Source: Propionibacteriaceae bacterium
GTDB lineage: Bacteria; Actinomycetota; Actinomycetes; Propionibacteriales; Propionibacteriaceae
Length of the DNA stretch: 50,298 nt
NCBI GenBank assembly: GCA_031262485.1
Contig: JAISHO010000034.1
Span: forward strand, 1-50,298
Direction: 5' to 3'
Position numbers and translations under genes: made by a program. The notes under the pieces are model-generated. The model was not told where the DNA came from. It saw only the letters and a list, made by a program, of their open reading frames with translations, and did no database searches. Below are positions 38,443 to 42,142 of this stretch, in pieces (the first letter of the stretch is position 1; each line of letters starts with the position of its first letter).

Positions 38443-38529
38443 GTGCTTCGTCATTCGCGGCCGTCGCTGGATATCTCTTGTGGCTCTTGGTGTGTCTGCG
38501 TGAGGAGCTACCGCTGCGATCAGTGGTAG
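38443..38529 (+). CDS. 28-aa cysteine-rich small ORF
   Basis: AAGGAGG (38431-38437) is five bases before GTG 38443. The peptide contains CGSWCVCVRSYRC: four cysteines within 13 residues, plus two Trp. It is preceded by the Fur-type palindrome. It may be a metal- or redox-related peptide or a leader peptide whose Cys codons sense cysteine supply, followed by the structured RNA and terminator ending at 38822. No family is recognised. Confidence 0.4.
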   Translation: MLRHSRPSLDISCGSWCVCVRSYRCDQW

Positions 38530-38630
38530 GTGTTGTGACCCCCCGGCCAGCTCGCTCCGATGCTCGGTCAGGGCGCTCGTCCGCCTCACGGTGGGCGCAG
38601 TGTCCCATTTGTGGAGGGGCGAGCCATCGA

Positions 38631-38822
38631 GGTGGGGGCCGCGCGGATGGATCTCAGCGGCCCCCACCGACTCCTCAAGGTGGGGAAACGTCTCGGCGGT
38701 CGTGCCTGACAGCGCCGCGTGGGATGCGAGGGGAAGAACCATACGTGTGGGGTCGGGGCCGATAGTCGCCCTTGGGGCTTCGGCCCCACCGATGGATCTC
38801 TCTGCCAGGCCGACCGTTTTTT
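38631..38822 (+). ncRNA. Structured RNA element with duplicated loop sequence, ending in a terminator
   Basis: A 12-bp stem is formed by GGTGGGGGCCGC (38631-38642) and GCGGCCCCCACC (38657-38668). A TGGGGC, TTCG, GCCCCA hairpin follows (38773-38788). GATGGATCTC occurs in the loop of the first stem (38646-38655) and again at 38791-38800. The element ends with GGTCGG/CCGACC pairing and T6. The 5' end is not defined; it may be the tail of the transcript encoding the Cys-rich peptide or a separate small RNA. No known RNA family is recognised. Confidence 0.4.
38751..38822 (+). terminator. Intrinsic terminator with T6
   Basis: GGTCGG (38751-38756) pairs with CCGACC (38810-38815), extended by GGCC-type pairing and enclosing the UUCG hairpin. 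TTTTTT follows at 38817-38822. Confidence 0.6.
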
Positions 38823-38941
38823 CCGGGACGACGATGTCGCCTGACCCGGCCTCATGGTTCCACTTTCCTCTGTTTATCCCTTGTCAAAGCCTTTTCGGAC
38901 GCGTTCGGGCGACGGTATCTCGACCCTCAAAGGAGGACGAG

Positions 38942-38970
38942 TTGACGAACCCTGTAACGCGTTATAGAGT
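38942..38970 (+). promoter_or_regulatory. Strong promoter for the Y-RNA locus
   Basis: TTGACG (38942-38947), a 17-bp spacer and TAGAGT (38965-38970) fit the housekeeping consensus (TANNNT -10). The predicted start near 38977 coincides with the beginning of the terminal stem of the first RNA element. Confidence 0.65.
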
Positions 38971-39031
38971 AGGCGATGTCGCGGGCCGAACAGGGGCCGT
39001 TATCAACTTTGGTGTCACTATCTACGGATAG
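38942..39031 (+). CDS. Doubtful 29-aa small ORF overlapping the promoter and RNA element
   Basis: AAAGGAGG at 38929-38936 is followed five bases later by TTG 38942, opening a 29-codon frame. It contains VGDVAGRTGAVINFG and stops at 39031. The ribosome site is excellent and the peptide looks protein-like. However, the same DNA makes a consensus promoter and the paired strands of an RNA element. It could be a decayed gene start; I give it low weight. Confidence 0.25.
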   Translation: MTNPVTRYRVGDVAGRTGAVINFGVTIYG

Positions 39032-39102
39032 TCCGGTTCGACTCCGGGGAGCCGAGGGGAAACCCGAGGCTCATCTCGGCCCCTACCGCCATGCCCGCGA
39101 CG
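38977..39102 (+). ncRNA. Structured RNA with T-arm mimic (second Y-RNA-like element)
   Basis: The ends pair: GTCGCGGGC (38978-38986) with GCCCGCGAC (39093-39101). A second helix pairs AGGGGCCG (38992-38999) with CGGCCCCT (39077-39084). Inside are ACTATC, UACG, GATAGT (39017-39032); a tRNA-type T-arm CCGG, TTCGACT, CCGG (39033-39047); and GAGCC, GA, GGG, GAAA, CCC, GA, GGCTC (39049-39072), a GNRA hairpin with tandem G-A mismatches. The order T-arm then closed hairpin also occurs in the next element. No D-arm is evident. It is probably a noncoding RNA of the Ro system; the class is uncertain. Confidence 0.6.
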
Positions 39103-39111
39103 CTCGACAAT

Positions 39112-39314
39112 TGCACACGACATCCATCGCACTGTGGTCCGAGTATGGGCCGAAGGCCTCCGGTTATCTCTGAGGAAGCACGGGTTGCGGGTTCGAGTCC
39201 CGTCGGCTTCACGGCCGTAGCTCAACTGGCAGAGCAGTGGCCCGGCATCGCCGGGTATTCCCGGGGCCACACCATGTCCGTGCCCGGTCCACAGGGCGAT
39301 GGTGTCGTGTCGCA
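39112..39314 (+). ncRNA. yrlA: Bacterial Y RNA, YrlA-like, with permuted tRNA mimic
   Basis: The terminal stem pairs 39115-39122 (ACACGACA) with 39303-39310, leaves T39123 bulged, then pairs CCATCGC (39124-39130) with GCGATGG (39296-39302), CTGTGG (39132-39137) with CCACAG (39289-39294), and CCG with CGG. GGTCCGAG at 39136-39143 resembles the conserved 5' strand of animal Y RNAs. GCACGG (39178-39183) pairs with CCGTGC (39278-39283). Next come a T-arm (GCGGG, TTCGAGT, CCCGT; 39187-39203), a capped mini-acceptor (CGGC, GCCG; 39204-39217), TA as tRNA positions 8-9, and a D-arm (GCTC, AACTGGCA, GAGC; 39220-39235). YrlA RNAs are known tRNA mimics that bind Ro and tether partners such as PNPase. 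No clear promoter of its own is seen. Confidence 0.82.
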
Positions 39315-39370
39315 CGAGCCCACTCCTGTGGCGGCCCACTGCTGGGTCCGTCCTGCGGAAGGAAAACACT

Positions 39371-41023
39371 ATGGGAATCACGGATGCTTTGCGCACGATC
39401 AACGTTCGTGCCACGCCTCAATCGGCGCCGGCAAGCGCCGGTCAGGTCGTGAACTCGGCCGGTGGTTTCGTCTTCACCGTCGACGATCGCACCCGGTTGC
39501 GCCGCTTCCTCACGCTCGGCACGGAAGCCGGCTCCTACTACGTCACCGAACGCGAGCTGACGAAGCAGAACGCCCGCTTCCTCATCGCGTTGGCCCAGCG
39601 CGATCCCCGTCTCGTCGTCGACGAGGCGGTGGCGATCTCCCTGGCCGGGCGGGCGCCGAAGCAGAATCCCACGCTCTTCGCCCTCGCGGTCGTCGCCGGG
39701 GTCGCCGACGAGGACGGTCGCGCCTATGCGTTGTCTCGCCTCGCCGAGGTCGCCCGCACGGGAACCCACTTGGCGCTCTTCGTCACCTACGTGCAACAGT
39801 TCCGCGGTTGGGGCCGTGGGCTGCGCCGGGCGGTCGGCCAGTGGTATTCCGAGAAGACACCCGACGCGGTGGCTTATCAGACGCTCAAGTACCGCTCCCG
39901 CGAGGGGTGGACTCCGCGCGATCTCCTGCGCAAGTCGCACCCGGTGGCCCACGACGAGGCTCAGGCCCGTCTCTTCGACTACATCACCCATGGCGTGCCC
40001 GAGGGTGGTGTCGTCCCTGAGGGGTTGCCGGCTCTCGTGGCGGCGTATGAAGAGGCCAAGACGGCGTCGGTTCCCCGGCTCGTCGAGCTCATCGCTCAGC
40101 AGCCGTTGTCATGGGAGATGTTGCCGACGGAGGCGCTGGCCAGCCGCGAGGTCTGGGAGGCGCTCATCGAGCAACGCATGCCGGTCATGGCGCTCATGCG
40201 TCAGTTGTCGCGCTTGACGCGTCTCGGGGTGCTCGACGGCGCTTGTGGCGCCGAAGTCGCCCGTCGCTTGAGTGATCGGGACACCTTGGTCAAGGCCCGG
40301 GTGCACCCGATCTCCGTCCTCGTGGCCCTGCGCACCTACGCCTCCGGGCGCGGGGCGCGCGGTTCGGGCACGTGGGAGCCGATCGGTCGGATCGTCGACG
40401 CGCTCGACGCCGGCTTCTACGCCGCCTTCCAGGCGGTCGAGCCGACGGGCAAGCGCACCTTGTTGGCCCTGGATGTCTCCGGGTCGATGGTCATGCCGAT
40501 CGGCGGAACGCCGTTGACGTGCCGTGACGCCTCGGCGGCGCTCGCCCTCGTCACCGCCGCGACGGAACCGGATCACGAGATCCTCGGCTTCACCGCCAAG
40601 GGCAAGGATTCCTTCACCGTGTCCGGTGGCGCCCGCTCCTATGGCAGTGCGATCGCCCGGTTGCCGATCACTCCGCGACAACGTCTCGACGATGTCATCA
40701 AGGTGGTCGATCACCTGCCCTTCGCCGGCACCGATTGCGCCTTGCCGATGCTGTGGGCGACGGAGCAGAAGACACCGGTCGACACCTTCGTCGTGTACAC
40801 CGACAACGAGACGTGGGCGGGAGACATCCACCCGCGCCAGGCCTTGCGTCAGTACCGTGAGGTCATGGGGATCCCGGCCAAGCTCGTCGTCGTCGGCATG
40901 ACGGCCACACAGTTCACGATCGCCGATCCCGATGACGCCGGCATGCTCGACGTCGCCGGGTTCGACGCCTCCGTGCCCACCGTCATCGCGGATTTCTCCT
41001 CCGCCGAGGTCCCGTCCGCATGA
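39371..41023 (+). CDS. rsr: Ro60-like RNA-binding protein (Rsr), TROVE plus vWA
   Basis: The 550-aa product starts at ATG 39371 after GGAAGGAAAA. Residues about 15-345 form the TROVE HEAT-like ring (FVFTVDDRTRLRRFLTLGTE, ALFVTYVQQFRGWGRGLRRA, YQTLKYRSREGWTPRDLLRK). About 362-545 is a vWA domain with MIDAS residues in ALDVSGSM, GTDCALPM and VVYTDNETW. Ro proteins bind Y RNAs on the outside and misfolded RNA ends in the cavity, working with exoribonucleases in RNA decay and stress survival. The Y-RNA element ends 56 bp upstream. All key domains look complete. Confidence 0.95.
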   Translation: MGITDALRTINVRATPQSAPASAGQVVNSAGGFVFTVDDRTRLRRFLTLGTEAGSYYVTERELTKQNARFLIALAQRDPRLVVDEAVAISLAGRAPKQNPTLFALAVVAGVADEDGRAYALSRLAEVARTGTHLALFVTYVQQFRGWGRGLRRAVGQWYSEKTPDAVAYQTLKYRSREGWTPRDLLRKSHPVAHDEAQARLFDYITHGVPEGGVVPEGLPALVAAYEEAKTASVPRLVELIAQQPLSWEMLPTEALASREVWEALIEQRMPVMALMRQLSRLTRLGVLDGACGAEVARRLSDRDTLVKARVHPISVLVALRTYASGRGARGSGTWEPIGRIVDALDAGFYAAFQAVEPTGKRTLLALDVSGSMVMPIGGTPLTCRDASAALALVTAATEPDHEILGFTAKGKDSFTVSGGARSYGSAIARLPITPRQRLDDVIKVVDHLPFAGTDCALPMLWATEQKTPVDTFVVYTDNETWAGDIHPRQALRQYREVMGIPAKLVVVGMTATQFTIADPDDAGMLDVAGFDASVPTVIADFSSAEVPSA

Positions 41024-41479: not shown

Positions 41480-42142
41480 ATGGAGAACACCATCACTCAC
41501 GAACTCAATGAACGCTTTCGGCAGCTGAACTGGTTGCTGCGCCGTCACGGTCGTCCGCACCGTGGGCCCCACGGGGGCCCGGCGGCCGATCCCGAGCAGG
41601 GGCAGGGGCGCATCCTCGCGATGCTCAAGCTGCGCGACGGCATCTCGACCAAAGAGCTGTCCTACTTGCTCGGCATCCGCACCTCCTCGCTCAATGAATC
41701 CCTCGCCCGGATGGAACGCGCCGGTCTCGTGCGCCGCGAACCTTCCGAGGAGGATCGCCGCGTCATGCTCGTCCACCTGACGGACGAGGGGCGCGCCACC
41801 GATCAAGAGGAACCGGCCGCCGACGGCGTCTACGCCTGCCTCACCGCCGAAGAGCAAACGACTCTGCTGGGTTATCTCGATCGTCTCGTCGAGGCGGCCG
41901 AATCCTCGATCGGCGAGGAGGCCCGCGAATCCTTCGAGCGGATGCGCGAGGCCCGCACCCGCTTCGGCGGCGGCATGACCGGCGGTTTCTCCGCCGAATT
42001 CCGAGGCGGCTGGAGCGCCGGCGGCCGTCGCCCCGGCGGCCCCGAGGGCGGCCATGGCCCGCACGACGGCCCGCCCCACCGTGGCCCCCGCCACCCCGGC
42101 CGCGGTCGTCATCATCACGACGATGACCCGTCCCGCTTCTGA
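41480..42142 (+). CDS. MarR family regulator with Gly/His-rich tail
   Basis: In 220 aa, residues about 1-150 form a MarR winged helix (GRILAMLKLRDGISTKELSY, LLGIRTSSLNESLARMERAG, REPSEEDRRVMLVHLTDEG). Residues about 165-220 are Gly, His, Pro and Arg-rich (GGHGPHDGPPHRGPRHPG, GRGRHHHDDD), and a further His-rich patch lies near the N-terminus (RRHGRPHRGPHGGP). Such tails may bind metal or RNA. A promoter-operator overlaps upstream at 41386-41423, indicating autoregulation. No target gene is adjacent, which is unusual for MarR. Confidence 0.88.
   Translation: MENTITHELNERFRQLNWLLRRHGRPHRGPHGGPAADPEQGQGRILAMLKLRDGISTKELSYLLGIRTSSLNESLARMERAGLVRREPSEEDRRVMLVHLTDEGRATDQEEPAADGVYACLTAEEQTTLLGYLDRLVEAAESSIGEEARESFERMREARTRFGGGMTGGFSAEFRGGWSAGGRRPGGPEGGHGPHDGPPHRGPRHPGRGRHHHDDDPSRF

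What the first reader, a model, noticed from the sequence alone, without database searches (positions are those of the whole stretch)
39112..39314. YrlA-type Y RNA directly upstream of a Ro60-like gene, with a circularly permuted tRNA mimic
Both ends pair over about 25 bp with a single bulged base (T39123), and GGTCCGAG recalls the animal Y-RNA 5' strand. Above the stem are a T-arm with a correct TTCGAGT loop, a closed 4-bp acceptor-like hairpin, TA at tRNA positions 8-9, and a D-arm GCTC/GAGC with GG in the loop, in the order T, acceptor, D. That order cannot make a normal tRNA and matches the known idea that bacterial YrlA RNAs mimic tRNA. The complete rsr gene starts 56 bp later.
Basis: partly seen in the sequence, partly recalled or inferred. 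Interest (0 to 1): 0.9.

Follow-up and report, generated by a model that had tools for sequence, protein, structure and literature searches.

The report
Tandem Y RNAs before a Ro60 gene
A bacterium of the Propionibacteriaceae carries two small structured RNAs, one of them shaped like part of a tRNA, right in front of the gene for the ring protein they are expected to bind; RNAs of this kind share a short sequence signature with the Y RNAs of animals.

Summary
The finding is real. Window 39112-39314 is a YrlA-type Y RNA (Y-B) 56 bp upstream of a complete rsr (Ro60-like) gene. Rfam's YrlA model aligns over its full length, though under its curated cut-off (40.1 against 69 bits). In 22 aligned sequences the basal stem, T-arm, acceptor-like hairpin and D-arm show strong compensatory change (0 of 500 shuffles as good). 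A second Y RNA candidate, Y-A (38974-39106), was missed; it has a T-arm but no D-arm and lies just behind a promoter-like site with a palindrome (38942-38970).

The wider result is more interesting than the window. A Ro-site followed by GUUA(U/C)C lies near rsr in 63 of 80 named loci from many phyla (antisense strand: 1 of 80). UUA(U/C)C is a loop motif of nematode and vertebrate Y RNAs. Rfam's nematode model, run on 37 whole bacterial genomes chosen for having rsr, gave 22 hits in 15 genomes, all beside rsr. The window RNAs themselves do not reach that model.

The parts
38942..38970 (+). promoter-like TTGACG-N17-TAGAGT overlapped by an imperfect palindrome (about 38949-38970, CCCTGTAACGCGTTATAGAG)
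   Evidence: the only promoter-like site found in 38500-39420 (mean 0.2 in shuffles); (I4); palindromes of the CTGTAAC/GTTACAG or GTGTGTAG/CTACACAC type lie upstream of the first Y unit in 18 of 25 relatives printed (by eye)
38974..39106 (+). Y-A: second Y RNA candidate, T-arm but no D-arm
   Evidence: MFE -70.7, z -4.4; R1 hit 25.4 bits, E 0.012 in 602 kb and E 0.055 in the whole genome, not in the training set; Ro-site GGGCCGAA 38983, UUAUC 39000-39004
39033..39072 (+). Y-A T-arm (39033-39047) and following hairpin (39049-39072)
   Evidence: GGTTC-A--CC kept in 15 of 15 chosen T-only units (Y-A and 14 from relatives), GGTTCRANTCC in 14 of 15
39112..39314 (+). Y-B: YrlA-type Y RNA with extended basal stem (core 39137-39289)
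39147..39154 (+). Y-B Ro-site 5' strand GGGCCGAA; 3' side ACACCAUGUCC 39269-39279
   Evidence: (invariant and nearly invariant columns)
39155..39168 (+). Y-B upper stem 5' strand GGCC(U)CCGG (pairs with 39261-39268) followed by UUAUC 39164-39168
   Evidence: GTTAYC in 17 of 22 rows of A2; across phyla
39187..39203 (+). T-arm, loop UUCGAGU
   Evidence: (99.1% cells paired)
39204..39217 (+). closed acceptor-like hairpin
   Evidence: 5 of 5 pairs with double changes, 94.2% cells paired
39218..39235 (+). UA (tRNA positions 8-9) and D-arm 39220-39235 with GG in the loop
   Evidence: (100% cells paired, double change in 1 of 4 pairs)
39241..39255 (+). possible extra 6-bp hairpin after the D-arm, 3-nt loop
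   Evidence: best structure containing it is 2.8 kcal/mol above the MFE; a hairpin-like insert at this place is visible in 7 of 22 rows (by eye)
39357..39363 (+). ribosome-binding-site-like GGAAGGA of rsr
   Evidence: read
39371..41023 (+). rsr, 550 aa, Ro60 orthologue
   Evidence: PF05731, PF25045; 2nvo Rsr E 8e-110; Ro60 9nen E 5e-115

Best explanation
The locus is one transcription unit, promoter - Y-A - Y-B - rsr, in a bacterium of the Propionibacteriaceae. Y-B is a YrlA-type Y RNA: its basal stem with the GGGCCGAA / ACACCAU site holds Rsr (the Ro60 orthologue made by the next gene), and the tRNA-like module above it (T-arm, closed acceptor hairpin, D-arm, in permuted order) is folded and modified like a tRNA and presents Rsr to a partner, most likely PNPase, as in the RYPER RNA-degradation machine. 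Y-A is a second Rsr ligand with only the T-arm half of the mimic. Shown here: the sequences, their conserved structures, the adjacency, the family of the protein. Inferred: co-transcription and processing in the stems, Rsr binding, tRNA-type modification, PNPase tethering.
For: RF02553 full-length alignment. Covariation. R1 model: 106.7 bits here (R1 was trained with it), and 66 hits with E <= 1e-5 in 50 sources that I picked from 81. RF02553 hits at E <= 0.5, all under the cut-off, lie beside rsr in 25 of 27 Propionibacteriaceae rsr loci searched (the misses are L009 and L003, the latter with only 88 nt upstream; two loci with cut rsr genes, L029 and L030, were not searched). The Ro60 histidine H187 that contacts Y RNA (PMC4030889, passages) aligns by my count with H190 here, invariant in 15 Rsr proteins; K173 and R177, whose equivalents I recall as Y-RNA contacts, are invariant too. 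PNPase and TruB are encoded in the genome (all 14 control genomes ring as well, so this is weak). RYPER and DusA/TruB modification of YrlA are described for other bacteria (PMC8394870 passages).
Against: The Rfam score is under the curated cut-off, and the whole-window gathering search was empty. No transcript data. No terminator-like site was found before rsr, so a free RNA needs processing that has not been seen. PMC7790460 (passage) says that the functions of bacterial Rsr and Y RNAs had been studied only in D. radiodurans, so the PNPase tether is carried over by analogy.
Confidence: 0.85

Rival explanations
1. A decayed junction of two tandem tRNA genes: the 3' half of one followed by the 5' half of the next also gives the order T-arm, acceptor, D-arm.
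For: The tRNA-like letters are close to real tRNA (my reading). RF02553 rings below its cut-off in 10 of 14 control genomes, and R1 hits at 19.7-32.0 bits in this genome lie where ARAGORN finds tandem tRNA genes.
Against: The acceptor hairpin is closed on itself and covaries within the unit; it is nested in a covarying stem with a Ro-site, beside rsr, in many species. Score 106.7 bits against at most 32.0 for the tandem tRNAs. No tRNA is found in the window.
Confidence: 0.03
2. The Y RNAs act mainly in cis: as the 5' leader of rsr they let Rsr bind its own mRNA and set its level.
For: Same strand, close spacing, no terminator-like site between Y-B and rsr. A 15-nt, 87% complementary alternative pairing links the Y-B apex (39233-39247) with the rsr leader (39329-39343).
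Against: Bacterial YrlA is described as a discrete RNA of 90-150 nt (PMC8394870 passages). In Salmonella the Y RNA genes follow rsr (rsr-yrlBA-rtcBA, PMC7790460 passages), and one hit here (L082) is downstream of rsr. Conservation of the alternative pairing was not tested.
Confidence: 0.2
3. The tRNA-like module works as a decoy for tRNA-binding enzymes or nucleases and not as a tether.
For: YrlA was proposed as a possible competitive inhibitor of an anticodon nuclease (PMC7790460, passage). Y-A keeps a T-arm without a D-arm.
Against: No direct test here; the PNPase tether is described from experiments elsewhere (passages).
Confidence: 0.12

Closest known systems
YrlA Y RNAs (Rfam RF02553; Salmonella, M. 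smegmatis)
   Same: T-arm, closed acceptor hairpin, D-arm in permuted order on a long basal stem beside rsr; full-length model alignment
   Different: 29 bits under the Rfam cut-off; different upper stem; carries GGUUAUC after it, where the aligned Rfam consensus shows no UUAUC; basal stem of about 35 bp; a second, T-arm-only Y RNA candidate on the promoter side
Nematode sbRNA (RF01656) and vertebrate Y RNA (RF00019)
   Same: GGNCCGRAG Ro-site, upper stem, then UUA(U/C)C at the 5' side of the loop
   Different: No tRNA-like module is described for them in the passages I saw; the window RNAs give no hit to either model. RF00019 gave rsr-adjacent matches only in G227 (L107), none over the cut-off
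Deinococcus Y RNA (RF01053)
   Same: Rsr-adjacent Y RNA; D. radiodurans-type Rsr 2nvo is a close protein relative
   Different: No hit to this model at the window; the one place seen, 37.1 bits with cut-off 80, is in the Armatimonadetes locus L107/L126, and a search of a shorter stretch there did not list it
RYPER (Rsr - Y RNA - PNPase)
   Same: Rsr, Y RNA and PNPase genes all present
   Different: No biochemical evidence in this organism

Membership tests
YrlA class of bacterial Y RNA | encoded next to an rsr/Ro60 gene | tested here: met
   rsr at 39371, same strand
YrlA class of bacterial Y RNA | basal stem joining 5' and 3' ends with a conserved Ro-site | tested here: met
YrlA class of bacterial Y RNA | T-arm, closed acceptor-like stem and D-arm, with covariation | tested here: met
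   99.1, 94.2 and 100% cells paired; double changes in 3 of 5, 5 of 5 and 1 of 4 pairs
Rfam RF02553 as curated | score at or above gathering cut-off 69 bits | tested here: not met
   40.1 bits; 0 of 147 genomes of the family group reach it, so the model looks narrow
YrlA class of bacterial Y RNA | stable RNA bound to Rsr, modified by TruB/DusA | not testable with these tools
   needs RNA and protein experiments
Ro60/Rsr protein | TROVE and Ro60 vWA domains, Y-RNA-contact residues | tested here: met
RYPER | Rsr tethered to PNPase by Y RNA | not testable with these tools
   PNPase gene present, not informative
Animal Y RNA / nematode sbRNA | match to RF01656 or RF00019 | tested here: not met
   window RNAs: no hit. 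Other bacteria: RF01656 over its cut-off in 3 of 37 genomes
Y-A as YrlA | D-arm | tested here: not met
   no D-arm in Y-A; it is filed as a Y RNA candidate, not as YrlA

The most novel reading that the evidence does not exclude
Bacterial and animal Y RNAs are one homologous family in more than the Ro60-binding stem. The UUA(U/C)C loop motif, studied in animals as a DNA-replication element, is an ancient part of the Ro ribonucleoprotein. It sits at the hinge between the Ro60-binding stem and the effector module, and it was inherited by animal Y RNAs from a bacterial-type Y RNA. In bacteria the effector module above this hinge varies freely: full tRNA mimic, T-arm-only half mimic (as Y-A), or none.
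Probability: 0.5. Interest if true: 0.8.

Novelty: new member of a known kind. Interest (0 to 1): 0.55.

Why it matters
The window RNA adds a divergent YrlA that standard annotation misses (no Rfam gathering hit, no tRNA call) and a companion with half a tRNA mimic. If the shared UUA(U/C)C element is inherited, it gives a bacterial, genetically easy system to ask what this element does, a question so far asked in animal DNA replication. A review in the library states that bacterial Y RNAs are not homologous with the vertebrate clades and that the D. radiodurans Y RNA lacks similarity in the upper stem domain (PMC4726728, passages); the comparisons here speak against the general form of the first statement. 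Another review (PMC4030889, passages) already proposes an ancient common origin on the evidence of the stem.

Tried and rejected
Rejected: tandem tRNA remnant (see rivals). Rejected: GGTCCGAG at 39136 as Ro-site (not conserved). Tried without support: vertebrate Y_RNA model RF00019 in 27 Propionibacteriaceae genomes: 2 genomes with weak matches (E 0.62 and 0.96), neither near rsr, while 4 of 14 control genomes ring. RF01656 in 195 genomes of the family group: 6 genomes with one hit each, 5 of the 6 hits just upstream of rsr, the sixth (G101) in a genome where no Rsr was found, no hit in the window's own genome (Rsr places); one of 14 control genomes, Caulobacter, also rings and was not followed up. 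RF00019 in 37 other genomes: 3 matches in 2 genomes, two upstream of rsr in G227 and one (G224, E 0.315) on another contig; 2 of 14 controls ring. My census regex missed Y-A and every unit of L026 and L027, so its class counts (31 T+D, 19 T, 2 D, 15 neither, in 27 loci, window included) are rough, the first unit list, holds false units that I judged by eye. Papers not held: Chen 2014, Sim and Wolin 2018, Wang 2018, Chen 2013, so I could not check whether the UUA(U/C)C motif in bacteria is in print; the search 'UUAUC' + 'Y RNA' (4 papers) and searches showed no such statement in the listings and passages that I saw.

Full report
What is there. The stretch 39112-39314 folds into one long hairpin (MFE -110.3, z -5.3). 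The basal stem is about 35 bp with a few flaws. Above it lie the conserved Ro-site GGGCCGAA (39147), a short upper stem, UUAUC (39164-39168), a T-arm (39187-39203), a closed acceptor-like hairpin (39204-39217), UA, and a D-arm (39220-39235). ARAGORN finds no tRNA in the window. Rfam with gathering cut-offs finds nothing in the whole window, but the E-value search of 601 bases gives YrlA RF02553 at 39157-39270, model 1-114 of 114, 40.1 bits, E 2.2e-7, cut-off 69. The gene 39371-41023 is a Ro60 orthologue, the only match to its own protein in the genome.

Relatives. An Rsr match was found in 31 of 198 genomes of the family group (one, G117, is marginal at E 7e-4, and two, G181 and G193, are partial). 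In the window's genus it was found in 2 of 19 genomes. The window's own species is not known. Rfam YrlA hits at E <= 0.5 stand beside rsr in 25 of 27 relatives' loci. By a rough pattern 22 of 27 loci (window included, counted with one) hold two to four Y-like units in tandem: some with T-arm and D-arm, some with a T-arm alone, some with neither.

Covariation. I aligned 22 D-arm-bearing units, the window's and 21 from relatives. These are a choice. Left out: both units of L013 (near-copies of L012), L006, L025 and L028 (3' end not clear), the units of L009 and L017, and further copies in L012, L020, L023 and L024; L026 and L027 were not recognised by my pattern. On the four helices 95.1% of cells are standard pairs, 18 of 26 pairs have changes on both sides, and 0 of 500 shuffles reach any of the five measures; sliding the partner by 1-3 columns drops pairing to 35-46%. 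The 3' ends of these units had been chosen partly by complementarity to the 5' strand, which favours the basal stem. I therefore repeated that helix with 3' anchors chosen by sequence alone: 54 units from 23 loci, 6.28 of 8 outer pairs within a unit against 4.05, sd 0.17, between units. T-arm, acceptor and D-arm were not affected by that choice.

Second Y RNA. At 38974-39106 lies Y-A (MFE -70.7, z -4.4) with GGGCCGAA, UUAUC and a T-arm, but no D-arm. The R1 model, trained without it, gives 25.4 bits, E 0.012, E 0.055 against the whole genome: weak on its own, but in place. Fifteen chosen T-only units (Y-A and 14 from relatives) all keep GGGCCG, GTTA-C and GGTTC-A--CC. The only promoter-like site in 38500-39420 ends at 38970, and no terminator-like site separates Y-A, Y-B and rsr. 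A palindrome overlaps this promoter; palindromes of two related types lie upstream of the first Y unit in 18 of the 25 relatives printed (by eye, no statistics; for L008 the printed stretch was not the right one).

Across phyla. R1 finds Y RNAs at rsr in many phyla (203 hits with E <= 1 in 81 sources; 66 with E <= 1e-5 in 50 of these sources). In the three phages that I looked at (of 344 records with Rsr) R1 hits lie upstream of the Rsr gene: Gordonia phage Cashline 118 bits and Mycobacterium phage Mangeria 90.6 bits within about 0.2 kb, Streptomyces phage Tribute 34.5 bits about 0.8 kb away with two genes between. UUA(U/C)C occurs near the expected place in 59 of 66 of the R1 hits and GTTAYC in 17 of the 22 training units, but R1 contains the motif. 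Without R1: a Ro-site followed after 5-14 nt by GTTAYC within 1.5 kb of rsr occurs on the sense strand in 63 of 80 loci and on the antisense strand in 1 of 80; it is present in every one of nine groups that I formed from the record titles. In one search a stricter pattern gave 140 sites in 152,403 bases near rsr (58 of 80 loci) and 18 in 951,385 elsewhere. Among all 6-mers after 178 Ro-like sites upstream of rsr, GGTTAT (65) and GTTATC (63) rank first; after 1,214 such sites elsewhere in the loci they occur 33 and 34 times.

Link to animal Y RNAs. [quoted passage not shown] Rfam's nematode model RF01656 searched in 37 genomes (about 212 Mb by the table), which I chose among those of the 80 named rsr loci, gave 22 hits in 15 genomes. 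All 22 are on the rsr strand: 21 upstream within 1.3 kb, one 151 nt downstream. Three genomes pass the curated cut-off of 38 bits: G213/L072 42.4, G227/L107 41.9, G211/L068 38.2. The alignments show CGGGCCGAAG, UGGGUUAUC, CCCA and CACCAACUUG (best in L072) against the nematode consensus. The vertebrate model RF00019 reaches 28.8 bits, E 0.0019, in G227, upstream of rsr, and a neighbouring unit aligns GUGGGUUAU with it at 22.5 bits. Against this: 22 of 37 genomes had no RF01656 hit, the window's genome had none, the genomes were chosen because they hold rsr, RF00019 stays under its cut-off and has one stray match and two ringing controls, and RF01656 rings in one control. Convergence on Ro60 binding can explain the stem; it explains the loop motif less easily.

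Verdict. The finding is a true YrlA-type Y RNA and, as to identity, an ordinary member of a known kind. What raises its interest is the company: a half-mimic Y RNA, tandem arrays, and the loop motif shared with animals. Function remains inferred.

Noticed in passing
L126 1380-1487 (Armatimonadetes rsr locus), L055 1935-2539: Among tandem Y RNAs the D-arm of one and the T-arm of the next seem to be read by Rfam as an ordinary tRNA with a long insert (41.8 bits in L126, 39.9-48.3 in L055, over the cut-off of 29), a possible source of false tRNA annotation.
   Followed up: partly
window 38949-38970; L002, L005-L007, L009-L015, L017, L018, L020, L022-L025: Palindrome (CTGTAAC/GTTACAG or GTGTGTAG/CTACACAC type) upstream of the first Y unit, often over the promoter-like site, as for a dedicated regulator (by eye).
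   Followed up: partly
window 39233-39247 and 39329-39343: 15-nt, 87% complementary alternative pairing between the Y-B apex and the rsr leader.
   Followed up: no
window 39299: An in-frame ATG inside the Y-B 3' strand would give a 574-aa rsr; the ribosome-binding-site-like GGAAGGA and the starts of relatives favour 39371.
   Followed up: partly
L019 189-963 and 3187-3514: rsr locus inside a tRNA array (9 ARAGORN tRNAs) with a sub-threshold type III hammerhead match at 909-963 (34.3 bits, cut-off 48.5).
   Followed up: no
L145 2191-2346 (Mycobacterium phage Mangeria): The YrlA-like hit overlaps two annotated hypothetical proteins.
   Followed up: no
phage collection: 344 phage records hold an Rsr relative, 312 of them Mycobacterium or Streptomyces phages.
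   Followed up: partly
window 41480-42142: MarR-family regulator gene downstream of rsr; link to the promoter palindrome untested.
   Followed up: no
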